Assembly (NCBI GenBank): GCA_902613275.1
Contig: CACMGM010000014.1
Location: 1-15,947, forward strand
Length of the DNA stretch: 15,947 nt
Direction of reading: 5' to 3'
From: an uncultured Alphaproteobacteria bacterium
Lineage (GTDB): Bacteria; Pseudomonadota; Alphaproteobacteria; HIMB59; GCA-002718135
Below, one piece after another: positions 2,725 through 9,262 of this stretch (its first letter is position 1; each line of letters begins with the position of its first letter). The notes under the pieces are model-generated. The model had not been told where the DNA came from. It did no database searches and saw nothing but the letters and a program-made list of their open reading frames with translations. The translations under genes were made by a program, and so were the position numbers.

Positions 2725-3473
2725 TTCTGGATAATTCCAATATGTTTAGTTTCAAATTTATAAATATAATATTTTACATTAATATATTCTGCAAAATCTA
2801 CGAACGCACTGTTGTCAGAGACATCATCTGAAATTAGAAAGCCTTTATCATTTAATAAGTTCCAAATAACATTGAAGGATTTAGTTTTAGAATGGTAATT
2901 CTTATCACTATCATAATGAATTAAATCAAATTTAAGTTTTTTTTTCTGAAATCTAATAAGAATTTCATAATCTATACCAAGTATTAGTTTCCATTGTTTT
3001 TTTTTCAAAATTTTAGGTATTGCTGAGCCTATATATTTTTTGCTATTTTTGTAAGGGTAAGGCAAATCAATTGATGTAAGAGTTTTATTTTTATCTTTTC
3101 TTATTGCCAATAAAATAGATAATGTAGACCATCCATTAGCAACACCAGTTTCTAAAATATTTTCAATTTTTTTATTTTTAGAAATATTAAATAAAAGTTC
3201 TTGGTCTGCTCCACCGCCAAATTTATATGGGTTTTCATTTAATTTAGTTCCTTGATGAAGATAAAGTTTTTTATAAATTTTTGATGGGTGTACAGGTTTG
3301 TTTATATTAAATATATTTTTGAGAATATAATCTCTATTATAAATATTATTTTCACTAAATTTGAATGGCTTTTCAGATGTTAGACCAATGATTTTTTTAA
3401 TTTTTCTTAAAATAATTTTTAAAATTATCTTTCTTAGATTATGATCTAAAAAATAATAAAAATATTTATTCAT
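2721..3473 (-). CDS. Class I SAM-dependent methyltransferase (Methyltransf_24-like)
   Basis: This 250-residue protein has the elements of a Rossmann-fold methyltransferase. Motif I is 'ETGVANGWSTLSILLAI' (residues 108-124), which holds the Glu-x-Gly-x-x-x-Gly SAM loop. The acidic end of strand beta-2 is D136 in 'SIDLPYP', and 'FDLIHYDSDKNYHS' (182-195) and 'FLISDDV' (212-218) correspond to the later beta strands. The first 30 or so residues are basic and partly hydrophobic, perhaps binding the membrane surface or a partner. Relatives with the beta-4 'D-x-I/H-x-D...H' arrangement include sugar O-methyltransferases of polysaccharide and glycopeptide loci, so methylation of a hydroxyl on the glycan is the likely role. 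It is coupled by ATGA overlaps on both sides to GT4 genes, which supports action on the same product. The fold is well supported; the substrate is inferred. Confidence 0.78.
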   Translation of the reverse strand: MNKYFYYFLDHNLRKIILKIILRKIKKIIGLTSEKPFKFSENNIYNRDYILKNIFNINKPVHPSKIYKKLYLHQGTKLNENPYKFGGGADQELLFNISKNKKIENILETGVANGWSTLSILLAIRKDKNKTLTSIDLPYPYKNSKKYIGSAIPKILKKKQWKLILGIDYEILIRFQKKKLKFDLIHYDSDKNYHSKTKSFNVIWNLLNDKGFLISDDVSDNSAFVDFAEYINVKYYIYKFETKHIGIIQK

Positions 3474-4561
3474 TTAATTAATGCCTCATATTTCTTACCA
3501 ATATAATCAAGAGAATACTTAGAGTATAAATGAGTTTTTGGTATTATTTTTATTTTTTCATTAAATGCAAAATTTAATAATTTTAATAGCTCTTCTTTAT
3601 CTCCTAATTTGCATAATAATCCATATTTGCCACCTTCTAAAATTTCGTACGGTCCAAATTTACAATTATAAGAAATTATTGGAATGTTATTACTAGCTGC
3701 ATCTAAAAGAACATTAGGAAAACCTTCCCACAATGAAGTAGATACATATAAATTAGAAATTTTAAAAAAAGGAGTTAAATCATTTTGAAAGTTAAAAATA
3801 AAAATATTATTTTTTAAATTTTTTTTATTAATTAATTTTTGAATATTTTTTTTTAATGGACCATTACCAATCAATAATAAGCATGTATTTTTAATATTTT
3901 GAATTTGAGAAAATACATTAATTAAATCTTTATGATTCTTTTGTTTAGTAAATGATCCTATATTTATAATGATATTACTGAAATTATTTTTAATCTTTTC
4001 AATTTTTTCTAAAATTGTATAATTTATTTTGTCATTTATTTTTATTGAAATTGGATTATTGATAACAAATTTATTTTTATCTAAGATATTATATTTATTT
4101 AGAATGGATTTTTTTAAATATTCACTTGGATATATAACAATACTATTTTGGCTTATTTTTTTTATAAAGAATTTATAAAATAGTTTTTTAACATAGTACA
4201 TATCATTTAAGCTTAAATCAGTATTGTTGGATTCTCTAAAAATTATTTTTTTTTTAAAAAAAAAATTTAATACATAAAGGATTATGTTAACATGCGTAAA
4301 TGTAGTAAAAATTATATTGCTTTTAGTATTCTTTAAATAAAAGAAAATATTAAAAAAACTTTTGAAACTTCTTTTCTTATTAAAGTTGATATAATTTATT
4401 TTTAATTTACTGAAATTTATTTTATAATCGTTTTTGTTTTGTAAGGTTACAAGTTCTACAGTATAGTTCTCTTTTGCAAGATAATAAGCTATATTAATAA
4501 AAACTTTTTCAGCACCTCCACCTTTTAGTGAGGGTAATATAAATGTCACAAATTTATTCAT
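3470..4561 (-). CDS. GT4-family glycosyltransferase
   Basis: I place the start at the ATG at 4561-4559, giving 363 residues and an eight-base overlap with the stop of the gene before it (ATGAATAA). An upstream in-frame TTG at 4594 and ATG at 4582 would add up to 11 residues ahead of the conserved N-terminus and lengthen the overlap. 'FILPSLKGGGAEKVFINIA' (residues 7-25) is the glycine-rich acceptor-domain loop; 'NIGSFTKQKNHKDLI' (200-214) begins the donor domain. The E-x7-E signature appears as E279-x7-D287 in 'EGFPNVLLDAA', a conservative change in the second acidic residue. 'FGPYEILEGGKYGLL' (302-316) resembles the Gly-Pro-x-Glu-Ile-Leu region of HexNAc-transferring GT4 enzymes, which hints at, but does not prove, a HexNAc donor. 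A T10A10 tract lies within the gene. Confidence 0.9.
   Translation of the reverse strand: MNKFVTFILPSLKGGGAEKVFINIAYYLAKENYTVELVTLQNKNDYKINFSKLKINYINFNKKRSFKSFFNIFFYLKNTKSNIIFTTFTHVNIILYVLNFFFKKKIIFRESNNTDLSLNDMYYVKKLFYKFFIKKISQNSIVIYPSEYLKKSILNKYNILDKNKFVINNPISIKINDKINYTILEKIEKIKNNFSNIIINIGSFTKQKNHKDLINVFSQIQNIKNTCLLLIGNGPLKKNIQKLINKKNLKNNIFIFNFQNDLTPFFKISNLYVSTSLWEGFPNVLLDAASNNIPIISYNCKFGPYEILEGGKYGLLCKLGDKEELLKLLNFAFNEKIKIIPKTHLYSKYSLDYIGKKYEALIK
4246..4265. repeat. T10A10 self-complementary homopolymer pair inside a glycosyltransferase gene
   Basis: Ten T are followed directly by ten A, a perfect 20-base palindrome with no loop. It reads the same on both strands and encodes Phe-Phe-Phe-Lys-Lys-Lys in frame (residues 101-106 of the GT4 gene read from 4561). 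Runs of nine or ten A or T do occur elsewhere in this AT-rich sequence, so it may be chance, but slippage in either run would frameshift the enzyme. Confidence 0.9.
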
Positions 4562-6341
4562 TAACTTTGGATAACTTTTCATTAAATTTTTCAATAATCT
4601 TAAATCTTAAAGAAATTCTATTTTTATCTTTTGCAGAATAAATTGAGAGACTATTCGTATTATCAAATTTTGTATTTTTTTGTAACTTTTTTGATAATTC
4701 ACTATCTGAAATTTTAAAATCATTTATTGGAACATTAAAGCCCTTTTTTGATGGTTCAATTAAGTTAATTGGCAAATAATTTTTTAATAGATTTCTTAAA
4801 GGAGTTTTATTACCTTTTGTAAAAAAACATTCACTTTTAAATTGATTAGTAAATTCAAAAAGATCTTTAGATAAAAATGGAGATCTCGTTTCTATACTAG
4901 CTCGCATACTGCCTAAATCATTTGCTAGTATATAGTTTGTAGGAAGAGTAACATTTCTTTCAAAATTAATTGTTTGTTTTAATAAATCTTTTTCAACATT
5001 AAAATAATCATTTTTAATATTTTCATTTTCAAATAAATCAGGTGCTATTCTGTTATTTATATATAGATATTTATTCTGATAATTATAATTAGTATATTTA
5101 ATCAAATTACTAATTTTTTTATATTTTTTTAATAATGATTTATTGTTTAAAAAATTAGTGATAAATTTTAAATAATTAGTTTCGGTAATTTTTTGTAAAT
5201 TTGAGTTTATAAAATTATATTTATTATAACCGATAAATGCTTCATCACCACCTAGCCCAGTTAAAGCTACTTTAACATTTTTATTTATAGCCTTAGACAT
5301 TAAAAATATTGAAAGTGCAGTTAAATTATCATTTGGATATCCAAATATTGACATTAAGTTTTCACAATTATAAAAGTTTTTACTATTTGCTTTAATAATA
5401 TTATTTTTCAAACCCAAAAATTCAGCAATTTTTTTAGACATAGTTGTTTCATCGTTTTTTTTAAAAGAAACAGTAAATGTTTCTAAATTTAAATTTAATT
5501 CTTTTTTTACTATTGCTGCAATTAAGGAACTATCAATTCCAGATGAAAGAAATAAACCTATTGGCACATCAGATATTAATCTTAATTCAATTGAATTTAT
5601 CAGAATTGATTTTAAATTTTCATAATCTTTTTTTTCAAAAACTCCTTTTAATTCTTTTTCATTATTACGACTAATATCCCAGTATTTTTTTTGCTTAAAA
5701 TTAGTAGGATTTTCGAACTCTATTATAGTTGCTGGTGGAATTAACTTAATCTGATCAAAACCAGTATTAAAATTTACATCATAACCATATTGTAGAAAAT
5801 TTTTAAGAAATTCTCTATTTATTTTGTTTCTATTTTTATTTATTAATAATAAAGGCTTGATTTCAGATGAAAAATATACACCTTTATTATTTTTTAAATA
5901 AAATAATGGCTTCTCACCAAAATGATCGGTAACCAATGACAATTTTCTTTCATGAAAAATTGCAAAAGCATACATCCCATCAATATATTTTACAGATTCA
6001 TGTTTCTTTTCTTTCCATAGATTTATAAGAACTTCAGCATCACCTGAAGATTTAAAATTATATTTTTTATAAATTAAATCTTTTCTCAATGATTGAAAAT
6101 TGTAGATTTCACCGTTAAAAATCAAAGATGAGTTACTTCTAATCATAGGTTGATTTGAATTTTCAGATAAATCTATTATGGATAATCTTCTAAATCCAAA
6201 ATATAATCCATTATTTACATCATACCAATTTTTTTGATTATCTGGTCCTCTATGCTCTAAATTTTTTGTAAGATTATCGCCATACGATATATCATCAGTT
6301 GTCAATTTTCTATTTAACCAGAAACCAAAAATTCCACACAT
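4554..6341 (-). CDS. Glutamine-dependent asparagine synthase (AsnB) family amidotransferase
   Basis: This 595-residue protein has both halves of class B asparagine synthase. The N-terminal Ntn glutaminase domain begins Met-Cys-Gly-Ile-Phe-Gly, so Cys2 can act as nucleophile after Met removal, and it keeps 'RRLSIIDLS' (residues 51-59), 'FNGEIYN' (75-81) and 'SSGDAE' (98-103). The C-terminal ATP-pyrophosphatase domain has the PP-loop 'SSGIDSS' (266-272) and 'TGLGGDEAF' (361-369), and later the 'ETRSPFL' stretch. All expected catalytic residues are present, so it should hydrolyse glutamine and transfer ammonia to an AMP-activated carboxylate. Aspartate is the textbook substrate. Inside a polysaccharide locus, homologues such as WbpS of Pseudomonas aeruginosa are linked to amidation of uronic acids, which I consider more likely here. 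It follows the second homologue with a TAATG overlap at 6341. Confidence 0.9.
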   Translation of the reverse strand: MCGIFGFWLNRKLTTDDISYGDNLTKNLEHRGPDNQKNWYDVNNGLYFGFRRLSIIDLSENSNQPMIRSNSSLIFNGEIYNFQSLRKDLIYKKYNFKSSGDAEVLINLWKEKKHESVKYIDGMYAFAIFHERKLSLVTDHFGEKPLFYLKNNKGVYFSSEIKPLLLINKNRNKINREFLKNFLQYGYDVNFNTGFDQIKLIPPATIIEFENPTNFKQKKYWDISRNNEKELKGVFEKKDYENLKSILINSIELRLISDVPIGLFLSSGIDSSLIAAIVKKELNLNLETFTVSFKKNDETTMSKKIAEFLGLKNNIIKANSKNFYNCENLMSIFGYPNDNLTALSIFLMSKAINKNVKVALTGLGGDEAFIGYNKYNFINSNLQKITETNYLKFITNFLNNKSLLKKYKKISNLIKYTNYNYQNKYLYINNRIAPDLFENENIKNDYFNVEKDLLKQTINFERNVTLPTNYILANDLGSMRASIETRSPFLSKDLFEFTNQFKSECFFTKGNKTPLRNLLKNYLPINLIEPSKKGFNVPINDFKISDSELSKKLQKNTKFDNTNSLSIYSAKDKNRISLRFKIIEKFNEKLSKVNE

Positions 6342-8179
6342 TATTTTTCAGATAACTCTATAAATCTGTTAAGAGAAATTAGACAAAACCAAAAAATTGG
6401 ATCAAATTCATCCCCCTTTTTCCAATTTAAATAAATAATCCTTAACTTATCCCAATCAATGGAGTCTACATTTTTGATTAAAAATTGATTATTTAAAGCC
6501 TTTTCAATTTCATTTAATAAAAAATTACTATTTATTAAATAATCATTAAGATTAGGCCATGTTCTATCTTTTAAACTTGGGGATGCATATTTTTTATTTC
6601 CGGTAATTAGTCTTCTAATTTTCCTAATTACTAATTTGATTGTTTTCATCTTATCAGAGTCACCTGCTAAGAAACCATGATTTGCGGTTGGAATACTTCC
6701 TATTTTTGGACCAATATTATTTAATGCATAAATTCTAATTTCATCAGTTAATCTTTGTTTTGCAGGTATAGAAAGATAAAAGTTTAGAATATCATTGTCG
6801 AAAGCTGGTGTCCTTACTTTAGCACATGTTAATTTTGATGTAATATTAATATTAGTAAAATGCCTGCCAAAAGCATTAAGCATAAGATATTCCCATTGAT
6901 CAATTTTTGATTTACAACAATCTTTTCCTCTATCTAAATCTTTTTTAATCGCAACTTTTATAGAATTTATTTTTGTATTAACTTGATTTTTTTTTATTAC
7001 ATTTTTTAGATCAAGTGTTTTATTTGTCCATGTTAATCGTAGAGGATTATATTTATAATATAATTCAACGATATTATCTATTTTCATTAATTTTCTAATA
7101 AATGTCTGACTTCCAAATAATTTTAAAAAATATGATGGCAAATAATTACCATAGTGCCAAAAATCTAGTGCGTGTCCGTGAAATACAACATCTACATCTT
7201 TTTTTATCTCATCTTTTAATCCGGTGAACAAAGCATCGTGTATTGAATACATTGCCCCACATATAATAACATTTGTGTCAAAATTATTTTCAAAATGATT
7301 TTTTTTAAGTTTAATGAATTTATGCTCTGAACCTGCTAATGTAGCCGCTTTACGAGCATATTTAACTTCTAAATTTTCACTAAAAGCAACTGTGAAACTT
7401 TTTAATTTTTTGTTTACTAAAGATACTGCGGTTGAAACTGTCCTGCTATCAAGTCCACTTGAAAAAAAATATCCATATCTATTTTTTTTATTCTCGCTAG
7501 TTAATTTTTTTATAGAATTAATTAATAAATTTATATACTTTTGTCCTGCTTCTTTTTTAGATCTTTTAATTTTATTAAAATTTGGCCTCCAGTAGTTTTT
7601 AGTTGAAAAATTTGCATTTTGTATTTCCAAAATTGAAGCAGGTAATAAATATTTAGAAAAATTATCATGGGTAGCATCACCCATAATTCTTGACATCCAC
7701 AAAAATTGTAAAATACTATTTTGATTTAATTTAAAATTATTATATTTTTTAAGTACTTTGAAGAGGTCAAAGTACAAAAAAGAGCCAAAAAATTTTCCTT
7801 CTATATATCCCCAATAAAAATGTATTGAGTTAAATCTATCATTAATAATTTTTAAAGAATTTTTATCTATATCATAAATTATTAATAAAAATTGACCATT
7901 TATTTTTGAAATTAGATTTTCTGAAAGTTTATTTTGTAAAATAAAACTAGCTGTTGAATTTAAATCTACTTGTTTATCAATAATAGGACTTCCAATTATA
8001 GTTACAATTTTCTCAGAATTTTTAATTGAAACAAAGTCAAAACAATTTTCATTTATTTCTAAATGTAAACCATTCTTATAAGAATTAAAATTTTTACTTT
8101 TAATAGTGCTCTGGATATTGATATTTTTAACTTTATCTGATGACCAAAACAAATTTAAATGAGGAATATTAAAATTCAT
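6341..8179 (-). CDS. Asparagine-synthase-like protein without glutaminase cysteine
   Basis: This 612-residue protein is a divergent AsnB homologue. The N-terminal portion still looks like an Ntn domain ('KINGQFLLIIYD' at residues 92-103, 'FFGSFLYFDLF' at 130-140), but it starts Met-Asn-Phe-Asn with no Cys2, so the glutaminase should be dead. The C-terminal domain keeps a PP-loop, 'SSGLDSR' (240-246), followed by a strand and 'FTVAFSE' (262-268), and a C-terminal 'RTPAFDND' (456-463) like the Arg-x-Pro-Phe-Leu-Asp region. The Gly-x-Gly-Gly-Asp-Glu motif is replaced by 'HGHALDFW' (334-341). It could adenylate a carboxylate and use free ammonia, an amine or the neighbour's ammonia, or be a regulatory partner. 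The ATG at 8179 lies three bases after the preceding stop, and the gene ends in a TAATG overlap with the canonical homologue. Family placement is secure; the reaction is open. Confidence 0.82.
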   Translation of the reverse strand: MNFNIPHLNLFWSSDKVKNINIQSTIKSKNFNSYKNGLHLEINENCFDFVSIKNSEKIVTIIGSPIIDKQVDLNSTASFILQNKLSENLISKINGQFLLIIYDIDKNSLKIINDRFNSIHFYWGYIEGKFFGSFLYFDLFKVLKKYNNFKLNQNSILQFLWMSRIMGDATHDNFSKYLLPASILEIQNANFSTKNYWRPNFNKIKRSKKEAGQKYINLLINSIKKLTSENKKNRYGYFFSSGLDSRTVSTAVSLVNKKLKSFTVAFSENLEVKYARKAATLAGSEHKFIKLKKNHFENNFDTNVIICGAMYSIHDALFTGLKDEIKKDVDVVFHGHALDFWHYGNYLPSYFLKLFGSQTFIRKLMKIDNIVELYYKYNPLRLTWTNKTLDLKNVIKKNQVNTKINSIKVAIKKDLDRGKDCCKSKIDQWEYLMLNAFGRHFTNINITSKLTCAKVRTPAFDNDILNFYLSIPAKQRLTDEIRIYALNNIGPKIGSIPTANHGFLAGDSDKMKTIKLVIRKIRRLITGNKKYASPSLKDRTWPNLNDYLINSNFLLNEIEKALNNQFLIKNVDSIDWDKLRIIYLNWKKGDEFDPIFWFCLISLNRFIELSEK

Positions 8180-8182
8180 ATT

Positions 8183-9262
8183 TTATAATTTTTTTAATAA
8201 TGTGTTCAAGCGATTTACAAAAACAGAATCAGAATTATTATCATAAGTGAACTTTCTATAATTTTCAAATCCATTAGTAGCGATATCATTTATTTTATTA
8301 AAATTTGTAAGTATATAATCAATTTTAGTATTTAAATCTTCAAAGTCCCACTTAAAATCTATATAGGTTTCATTTTCCTTGTAAAGGTTGGGCCAAGTAT
8401 AGATATGATTCATATTTGGCTTTAGCAAAATAGTTTTTTGTAAAAAAGTTTCAAAGTCTCTATAGGCTATTTCACCCCATCCAAAAGGAGATATAGAAAT
8501 TTTACTTTTGGATAGTTCTTTTAAATAATTAATTCGATTTATTAGTTTAAAATTATTTTTTTCATAAAGTTTTAGATGTTTCAAAATAGAAATTCTATGA
8601 AATTTAATAGTTTCTCTATATTTATTAAAATTAAATTTTGCAAAAATTTCATTAGTTTTAATAATTCTTTTGCTACTAGTTTCTCTTTTAAAATTTATTA
8701 AAAAATTAAATTTCAGATATTTATATATTTTTTTATAGTAATGAGAATATTTTGAAAAATCAGCCATAGATGAATTCCAAAATACTTCAATTTTTTGTAA
8801 ATCTTCTTCTTTTAAATTTCCATCAGAAAAATCAGGAAAATCATCTTTTATTAGAAATTTTTTATAATAATAATCTGTATATATTCTTCTGTCATACATT
8901 CTTGTTAAATATTTTTCTTTATCTTTTAAAATTTGTAATTTCCAGTATCTATCAATAAACTGAAAAACCTCTGACTGTATCCATCCAGATGAATCTGCAG
9001 TATCACAATAAATAATCTTGTTAAATTTTTTTTTAAGAAATGAAAAATCTTTGAAAATTTTTTCTTGGTTTTCTATCCATTCATTTCTATGAAATTTACT
9101 ATCTAATATAACCAGGTCACCTTCTAAATAATCTGAAATATTTTCACTAAATTTAAAATTAAAACCAGCTTCACTAATTTGATTCTGCCAAATTAATAAA
9201 GGTGTTAATAATGCAATTGAATTCTGATGTTTAAAACCAGGTGTTACAATATAAATATTCAC
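8183..9262 (-). CDS. Putative glycosyltransferase, CgeB/exostosin-like C-terminal region
   Basis: This 359-residue protein starts at GTG (9262-9260), overlapping the previous stop as GTGA; no other early start keeps the beta-strand N-terminus 'NIYIVTPGF'. The C-terminal third has the strongest signal: 'SPFGWGEIAYRDFE' (residues 258-271), then 'LLKPNMNHIYTWPNLY' (279-294) and 'FKWDF' (303-307). This Ser-Pro-x-Gly...Arg-x-Phe-Glu...Lys-Pro-x-Met arrangement matches the donor-domain end of GT-B proteins that are usually annotated as CgeB/YkvP-like or exostosin-like glycosyltransferases. The middle is rich in Lys, Tyr and Phe and unfamiliar, and the N-terminal half shows no clear Gly-rich loop. 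No E-x7-E signature is present. Its place between GT4 genes and the amidotransferase pair fits a transferase for the same glycan. A role in sugar transfer is likely but not demonstrated. Confidence 0.62.
   Translation of the reverse strand: MNIYIVTPGFKHQNSIALLTPLLIWQNQISEAGFNFKFSENISDYLEGDLVILDSKFHRNEWIENQEKIFKDFSFLKKKFNKIIYCDTADSSGWIQSEVFQFIDRYWKLQILKDKEKYLTRMYDRRIYTDYYYKKFLIKDDFPDFSDGNLKEEDLQKIEVFWNSSMADFSKYSHYYKKIYKYLKFNFLINFKRETSSKRIIKTNEIFAKFNFNKYRETIKFHRISILKHLKLYEKNNFKLINRINYLKELSKSKISISPFGWGEIAYRDFETFLQKTILLKPNMNHIYTWPNLYKENETYIDFKWDFEDLNTKIDYILTNFNKINDIATNGFENYRKFTYDNNSDSVFVNRLNTLLKKL

What the first reader, a model, noticed from the sequence alone, without database searches (positions are those of the whole stretch)
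4554..8179. Tandem asparagine-synthase homologues, one with an intact and one with a dead glutaminase
Two AsnB-family genes are joined by a one-base overlap. The second (4554-6341) has Cys2 and all canonical motifs. The first (6341-8179) lacks Cys2 and has HGHALDFW where Gly-Gly-Asp-Glu is expected, yet keeps the PP-loop. The pair could be a two-subunit system in which the intact protein provides ammonia and the degenerate one has its own acceptor, or two independent amide- or ester-forming enzymes. Such a pairing inside a glycan locus is unusual and I do not recall a characterised example.
Basis: partly seen in the sequence, partly recalled or inferred. Interest (0 to 1): 0.75.

Follow-up and report, generated by a model that had tools for sequence, protein, structure and literature searches.

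The report
Conserved enzyme pair in glycan locus
Two neighbouring genes for asparagine-synthase-like enzymes, one complete and one with its ammonia-making half dead, are kept side by side in very different bacteria, which points to an uncharacterised two-component enzyme system for decorating cell-surface sugars.

Summary
The degenerate protein (here "d", 612 aa) is not a decaying copy. It belongs to a distinct AsnB-fold family: in 80 members thinned to under 70% identity, PP-loop residues S240, G242, D244, the following R246, D339 and N500 are 100% conserved, while the glutaminase residues and (but for one Tyr in 34 rows) the Glu-Tyr catalytic dyad are gone.

Outside a Lentisphaeria-type clade, 11 of 11 core d genes (window plus ten loci, four phyla) abut an intact AsnB of one subfamily at -1 to +8 bp; a more divergent d gene does so at 12 bp. 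Order is reversed in one locus. In the Lentisphaeria-type clade 3 of 7 abut another AsnB type and 4 of 7 none; 8 of 9 complete weaker relatives also have none. The intact subfamily occurs without d in 5 of 6 cases in an Alphaproteobacterial sample, so dependence is one-sided. d and AsnB divergence correlate (r = 0.85). The partner keeps glutaminase and synthetase residues but has Leu where human asparagine synthetase needs Glu-364.

Best reading: a glutamine-dependent glycan amidotransferase plus a dedicated glutaminase-less ATP-dependent ligase acting as one unit. Interaction and both reactions are unshown.

The parts
6341..8179 (-). d: glutaminase-less asparagine-synthase-fold protein, 612 aa, upstream gene of the pair
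4554..6341 (-). Intact glutamine-hydrolysing AsnB-family amidotransferase, 595 aa, downstream gene of the pair
   Evidence: residue table
6339..6343 (-). TAATG junction: stop of d and start of the AsnB share one base
7442..7462 (-). PP-loop of d, SSGLDSR (residues 240-246); S240, G242, D244, R246 80 of 80 in the thinned family set
7157..7180 (-). HGHALDFW of d (residues 334-341); D339 80 of 80; His at the position of human Glu-364, aromatic at the position of Glu-368
6680..6682 (-). N500 of d, 80 of 80; by the GF anchor it lies where the catalytic Lys of AsnB is expected (alignment uncertain)
6336..6338 (-). Cys2 of the intact AsnB
   Evidence: Cys2 in 52 of 52 partner-type rows
5526..5546 (-). 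PP-loop of the intact AsnB, SSGIDSS (residues 266-272)
5241..5258 (-). GLGGDE of the intact AsnB (residues 362-367); Leu where the 12 other AsnBs compared carry Asp, Glu or Gln
8183..9262 (-). GT-B-fold glycosyltransferase-like protein, frequent third member of the module; abuts d in window, L001, L002 and L003
9259..11627 (-). Two group 1 glycosyltransferases (PF00534) upstream, in the same order as in L001

Best explanation
The two genes encode one functional unit of surface-glycan assembly. The downstream protein is a glutamine-dependent amidotransferase of a subfamily whose acceptor is probably a glycan carboxylate such as a uronic acid, not aspartate. The upstream protein d is a catalytically competent ATP-pyrophosphatase-fold ligase that has lost its own glutaminase and been re-tooled in its acceptor site. 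It activates a carboxylate or amide of the same glycan precursor with ATP and joins it to a nitrogen that it does not make itself: either an amine on the substrate, as in beta-lactam and lasso cyclases, or ammonia or an amide made by its partner. Shown by computation: the fold, loss of the glutaminase site, conservation of the ATP site, a fixed new acceptor-site signature, adjacency and correlated divergence. Inferred: that d is an active enzyme, its reaction, the uronic-acid substrate, and any physical complex.
For: Adjacency: 11 of 11 core d genes outside the Lentisphaeria-type clade abut one AsnB subfamily, same strand, gaps -1 to 8 bp; the more distant L043 does so at 12 bp; order reversed in L008. 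Four of 4 Pelagibacterales genomes in which d was found (of 297) have the pair. Metagenome source headers give d at 1026-2780 (P0269) and AsnB at 2781-4520 (P0042), both with longest contig 13769, consistent with one abutting pair; 7 longest-contig lengths are shared between the two hit lists (119 and 144 lengths), against 0-4 at 14 shifted controls. Distance correlation of 12 pairs r 0.845, 0 of 10000 permutations. Not decaying: in 80 members thinned to under 70% identity S240, G242, D244, R246, E271, F318, D339, G344, H440, N462 and N500 are 100%. Glutaminase residues absent: Cys2, Gln-binding Arg, NGE and Asp columns each 0 of 34 d rows. Some family members persist without an adjacent AsnB, which argues for chemistry of their own. 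NDP-sugar 6-dehydrogenase homologues lie in 4 of 12 paired loci (L001, L009, L041, L043), and L009 also holds 3-dehydrogenase-like and aminotransferase genes. Precedent for AsnB-type uronamide synthesis: WbpS/PGN_1234 (PMC7468200, passages).
Against: d has lost the Glu-Tyr pair that matters in PesC (Y368F no activity, E363A reduced; PMC13060819 section 10): Glu column 0 of 34, Tyr column 1 of 34. The essential Lys is probably replaced by invariant Asn500, though that alignment is unsure. It could therefore be catalytically dead. 4 of 7 Lentisphaeria-type and 8 of 9 complete weaker relatives have no abutting AsnB. No model of the complex and no ligand data. Part of the mirror-tree signal must be shared vertical or horizontal inheritance of the pair. 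The intact partner passes the asparagine synthase equivalog TIGR01536, so aspartate is not excluded. No uronate-forming dehydrogenase was recognised in the window or in the other seven of the 12 paired loci without one, some of them short.
Confidence: 0.42

Rival explanations
1. Channelled heteromer: d binds the AsnB directly and takes glutamine-derived ammonia from the AsnB's glutaminase, a split amidotransferase with two synthetase sites per glutaminase.
For: Tight gene coupling (gaps -1 to 12 bp in 12 loci), one-sided dependence of d on the AsnB in the window's clade, correlated divergence. Human asparagine synthetase is seen as a head-to-head dimer (PMC11615228 and PMC6748925, passages), so a hetero-dimer is conceivable. 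A dedicated ammonia supplier for a PP-loop sugar amidotransferase (WbpG with HisH/HisF) is recalled, not checked here.
Against: The partner keeps its own synthetase site and its own tunnel should lead there. 4 of 7 Lentisphaeria-type relatives and 8 of 9 complete weaker ones have no adjacent AsnB.
Confidence: 0.2
2. d is a pseudoenzyme: an ATP-binding regulatory or scaffold subunit of the AsnB, with no reaction of its own.
For: Loss of the whole glutaminase site, the catalytic Glu-Tyr pair and probably the catalytic Lys; in the window's clade d was not seen without AsnB (11 of 11).
Against: PP-loop and D339 100% conserved over 80 divergent members, with new fixed residues (R246 and N500 80 of 80, Y346 79 of 80). 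The partner subfamily exists without d elsewhere, and relatives of d persist without an adjacent AsnB.
Confidence: 0.22
3. Two independent enzymes that merely sit in the same operon and modify different sugars of one glycan.
For: Glycan loci often hold several AsnB-type genes: three in one Rubrivivax cluster (PMC3684757, passages); L006, L007 and L014 hold four AsnB-like genes each, d included.
Against: The same AsnB subfamily abuts d in 12 loci, while the further AsnBs of L002, L004 and L041 lie kilobases away and outside that subfamily; order reversed but adjacency kept in L008; correlated divergence.
Confidence: 0.13

Closest known systems
WbpS-type uronamide amidotransferases (Pseudomonas O6, PGN_1234)
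   Same: Intact AsnB-family amidotransferase inside a glycan locus; four of 12 paired loci also hold uronate-forming dehydrogenase homologues.
   Different: No degenerate AsnB partner is mentioned in the passages read. Sequence membership of the window's AsnB in that subfamily was not tested.
Beta-lactam synthetase and carbapenam synthetase
   Different: 11-13% identity; d has His where these have catalytic Tyr (recalled) and probably Asn for Lys443 (recalled); different genomic setting; no dedicated intact AsnB partner recalled.
TsnB9 hydroxyamidotransferase
   Different: Sequence starts MCG, with SGGLDSS and EAADE motifs (alignment), so the Cys and the motif Glu that d lacks are present; a natural-product enzyme (listing).
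TIGR01536 asparagine synthase (glutamine-hydrolysing)
   Same: The intact protein passes the cut-off (353.2 against 267.1 bits).
   Different: d fails it (92.8). The partner subfamily has L24 I15 M5 T3 V2 A2 S1, never Asp or Glu, in 52 rows at the human Glu-364 position.

Membership tests
Glutamine-hydrolysing asparagine synthase (for d) | N-terminal Cys nucleophile and Gln-binding Arg, Asn-Gly-Glu, Asp | tested here: not met
   Cys2, Arg, NGE and Asp columns each 0 of 34 d rows; NCBIfam 92.8 bits against cut-off 267.1. In the 80-row set one row begins MC, and 2 of 8 distant relatives have Cys in the column
Asparagine synthase superfamily fold, PF00733 (for d) | Pfam gathering score and two-domain fold | tested here: met
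ATP-pyrophosphatase (PP-loop) enzymes (for d) | SxGxDS loop and the Asp of the GxxxD motif | tested here: met
   S240, G242, D244 and D339 80 of 80; position 245 S 73, T 7 of 80
Catalytically active AsnB-type synthetase (for d) | Glu-Tyr dyad (GGDE Glu and GY Tyr) | tested here: not met
   Glu column F/Y/W in 34 of 34; Tyr column Tyr in 1 of 34
Catalytically active AsnB-type synthetase (for d) | Catalytic Lys (human Lys-466) | tested here: inconclusive
   GF anchor in the alignment gives N500 (80 of 80); global MAFFT places the column at residue 530, Lys in 17 of 34
Glutamine-dependent amidotransferase (for the intact AsnB) | Cys2, Gln-binding residues, PP-loop, GGDE, GY, Lys | tested here: met
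   Of 52 partner-type rows: Cys2 52, Arg 52, N 52, G 52, E 51, D 52, GGDE Glu 52, Tyr 51, Lys 50
Aspartate-specific asparagine synthetase (for the intact AsnB) | Acidic residue at human Glu-364, required for activity in human ASNS | tested here: not met
   Leu in the window; 0 of 52 partner-type rows acidic; E364A and E364Q inactive in human ASNS (PMC6748925, passages). TIGR01536 is nevertheless passed, and 4 of 12 other AsnBs have Gln there
WbpS uronamide synthase (for the intact AsnB) | Sequence clade and uronic-acid substrate | not tested
   No WbpS sequence was fetched; only the locus context was examined
Beta-lactam synthetase / carbapenam synthetase (for d) | Tyr-Glu base dyad and Lys443 (recalled) | tested here: inconclusive
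   His in 31 of 34 at the motif position, Tyr in 2, but the Tyr348 correspondence is recalled, and Glu382 and the Lys were not placed

The most novel reading that the evidence does not exclude
A two-protein AsnB machine: a complete glutamine-dependent amidotransferase and a glutaminase-less, chemically re-tooled sister form a hetero-oligomer and carry out two successive ATP-dependent N-couplings on one glycan carboxylate, for example amide then a further acyl, nitrile or amidine-type step. That would be a new split architecture in the asparagine synthetase superfamily and a new glycan modification.
Probability: 0.22. Interest if true: 0.82.

Novelty: new variant of a known kind. Interest (0 to 1): 0.6.

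Why it matters
AsnB-fold enzymes make amides, lactams, lasso rings, hydroxamates and nitriles. This family has a strictly conserved ATP site but has lost the checked catalytic residues of the acceptor site, so it may do something undescribed. The fixed gene pair makes that testable, because the partner, a likely substrate class (uronic acids, inferred) and a named culture-collection strain (Salidesulfovibrio brasiliensis JCM 12178, L008) are now in hand. If the pair is a heteromer it would show how a class II amidotransferase can be split or shared between subunits.

Tried and rejected
Viral contigs: 150 pattern stretches, no relative confirmed. PDB by sequence with d alone: no hit at 1e-3; with the A1 profile 11 distinct sequences at E up to 1, AsnB-superfamily and other PP-loop enzymes. 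Plasmid records: 28 records with a match, all under 60% identity, the ten listed at 17.6-22.6%.

Decayed copy of the neighbour: rejected, because the family is divergent and has its own fixed residues.

Annotation artefact or frameshift: rejected, because similar lengths and tight junctions recur in independent loci.

Fusion of the two genes as Rosetta-stone evidence: not answered. The query returned only proteins of 544-643 aa in the 120 listed of 331, so the absence of fusions is not shown. A complex model was not obtained: MAFFT laid the rows of both kinds onto one half of the joined query, so that job was not run.

PDB sequence search for the 8183 family profile: no hit under E 0.1; its fold search gave GT-B enzymes.

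Limits of the neighbour counts: the 450-bit line for core members was drawn after seeing the scores; AsnB neighbours were recognised at over 60 phmmer bits to the window's AsnB, so very distant ones could be missed; L001's AsnB is cut off by the contig end; L011, L012 and L039 lie near contig ends; the line between partner-type (518 bits and more) and other AsnBs (440 and less) was drawn at the score gap.

Literature: searches listed no paper that, by title and abstract start, describes a tandem intact/degenerate AsnB pair. One search returned no paper; one search listed 15 of 613 papers and one search listed 8 of 155. Most subscription papers are not held, so this is not proof of absence. Papers were seen as passages (PMC7468200, PMC11615228, PMC6748925, PMC6025236, PMC3684757) or passages plus section 10 (PMC13060819); the others as listings only.
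Full report
What is there. The window looks like a minus-strand glycan operon: glycosyltransferases, a Wzy_C-type protein, an epimerase-family protein and a methyltransferase. Transcription runs from high to low coordinates, so the degenerate gene d (6341-8179) is upstream and the intact AsnB (4554-6341) follows. They share one base in TAATG.

What d has lost and kept. In a joint alignment of 34 d rows, 52 partner-type AsnB rows and 12 other AsnB rows (recounted), d has none of the glutaminase residues: Cys2, Gln-binding Arg, NGE and Asp columns each 0 of 34. It keeps the PP-loop S, G and D in 34 of 34, S or T in 34 of 34, and the motif Asp in 34 of 34. The residue after the PP-loop is Arg in 34 of 34 d rows, mostly S, T or A in partners and Ser in 12 of 12 other AsnBs. 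The Glu of GGDE is F, Y or W in 34 of 34. The Tyr of the GY motif is Tyr in 1 of 34. The position of human Glu-364 is His in 31 of 34. That correspondence is also seen in the profile alignment to human ASNS, where FSGEGSDE stands under fhGhalDf. With 156 proteins thinned to 80 below 70% identity, S240, G242, D244, R246, E271, F318, D339, G344, H440, N462 and N500 are 100% conserved; one of the 80 begins MC. This looks like constraint on a new active site that still has its ATP loop. N500 probably stands where the essential Lys was, by the GF anchor in the alignment, but the global alignment disagrees, so this is marked uncertain.

What this means for chemistry. Human ASNS E364A, E364Q and D367A are inactive and Lys-466 contacts the acyl phosphate (PMC6748925, passages). 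In PesC the Glu-Tyr dyad matters (Y368F no activity, E363A reduced) (PMC13060819, passages and section 10). d keeps the equivalent of D367 but not E364, E368 or the dyad Tyr. Either d uses a different set of residues (R246, H336, the aromatic at 340, Y346, N500) for a related reaction, or it binds ATP without turning it over. Strict ATP-site conservation, and the persistence of relatives without any adjacent AsnB, favour the first.

Neighbourhood, d side. Twenty-eight d-family genes were examined with flanks: the window, 14 loci and 13. L012 is a contig-edge fragment. Eighteen score at least 450 bits and are complete (a line drawn after seeing the scores). Eleven of these (window, L001-L005, L008-L010, L041, L042; by record title Alphaproteobacteria, Bacteroidota, Desulfovibrionaceae and Chloroflexota) abut a partner-type AsnB on the same strand at -1 to 8 bp. 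Three (L006, L007, L014) abut another AsnB type upstream. Four (L011, L038, L039, L040) have no abutting AsnB. These last seven form a Lentisphaeria-type clade (100* support). Of the ten weaker rows including the fragment, one (L043, 345 bits) abuts an AsnB at 12 bp and nine have none in the held DNA; some of those contigs are short. In L008 the order is reversed. On the d tree the paired label needs 2 changes against a shuffled mean of 9.8.

Neighbourhood, AsnB side. The partner-type AsnBs form a clade against the 13 other AsnBs found in the same loci (99*) and against a further sample (99/97*), with SSG or SAG in the PP-loop in 50 of 52 rows and a mostly hydrophobic residue before GGDE. Among 297 Pelagibacterales genomes, the 26 listed A4 matches split into three at 647 bits and more and the rest at 419 bits and less; all three of the upper group abut d. 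These three were in the profile, so their scores are inflated. The divergent partner in G538 (L043) was not listed by that search. Among 289 Alphaproteobacteria genomes, six places scored 518 bits or more, the next 440, and only one of the six (G002) abuts d. A whole-genome search with the d profile found no d in four of the other five, and one distant d about 20 kb away in G173. These lone AsnBs nest inside the partner clade. So the AsnB does not need d, whereas d of the window's clade was not seen without the AsnB.

Independent support. The d and AsnB hit lists of the protein database share seven longest-contig lengths, against 0 to 4 for 14 shifted controls; four of the seven are under 8 kb, where coincidence is likelier. 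One pair carries source headers with abutting coordinates, 1026-2780 and 2781-4520, and the same longest contig (P0269, P0042); that it is one contig was not verified. Distances among the 12 pairs correlate at r 0.845, with 0 of 10000 permutations as high; relatedness of the hosts and joint transfer contribute to this.

Frequency. The family is rare. At E 1e-60, d was found in 4 of 297 Pelagibacterales genomes, 6 of 385 Alphaproteobacteria, 1 of 296 of the phylum of G010, 6 of 148 of the class of G006 and 1 of 247 of the phylum of G008; each set includes its seed genome. Only the best few candidates per genome were scored, so these are lower bounds. Of the seven places in the 385 Alphaproteobacteria, one (G002:C31) abuts an AsnB and six weaker ones do not.

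Third gene and substrate. The gene at 8183-9262 has a GT-B fold. Homologues abut d in L001, L002 and L003, and lie within 9 kb in L004, L007, L010, L011 and L041. Window and L001 share the five-gene order GT, GT, GT-B, d, AsnB. NDP-sugar 6-dehydrogenase homologues lie in L001, L009, L041 and L043, 4 of 12 paired loci (Pfam checked for L001 and L041, NCBIfam for L009). L009 also has a UDP-GlcNAc 3-dehydrogenase-like and an aminotransferase gene, both below equivalog cut-offs, a set that I read as Wbp-like. A uronic acid is therefore the best guess for the AsnB's acceptor, by analogy with WbpS (PMC7468200, passages; PMC6025236, passages). In the window itself no such dehydrogenase was recognised.

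Verdict. The joint-system idea is well supported as a functional link for the window's clade (I put any functional partnership there at about 0.85). The specific mechanism is open; I favour d as an active glutaminase-less ligase that works with its AsnB on one glycan precursor. It is a new, as far as the searches show uncharacterised, variant inside a known superfamily, not a new kind of system.

Noticed in passing
L010:6088-9660: Two related ORFs of 524 and 526 aa upstream of d; the second begins with about 60 residues of a d-type N-terminal domain (46.5 bits), as if a d fragment had been captured.
   Followed up: partly
L006:12486-14240, L007:11717-13480, L012:982-3084, L038:999-2771: In the Lentisphaeria-type clade d is next to or near a carbamoyltransferase (PF02543/PF16861 in L006; homologues in the others) instead of, or besides, an AsnB.
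   Followed up: partly
L006, L007, L014: Four AsnB-like genes (d plus three intact ones of different subtypes) lie within about 17 kb of one locus.
   Followed up: no
window:14914-15945: ORF without Pfam hit that runs off the window end; 79-bit relative at L001:964-2379 and weak ones in L004 and L010, so it may be another frequent neighbour.
   Followed up: partly
L005:8153-9943: 596-aa ORF without Pfam match 6 bp upstream of d, and without homologue in the other 27 stretches compared.
   Followed up: no
L048:5978-8882, L013:6669-7820, L049:9601-10287: Distant SGGxDSR relatives of d sit next to a NeuB-family gene (L048) or near ORFs that look WbqC-like by their first residues (recalled look, not scanned).
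   Followed up: no
L036 and L031: The genome search reported one in-frame stop inside the match of each of these d relatives; the loci held open frames of 609 and 576 aa.
   Followed up: no
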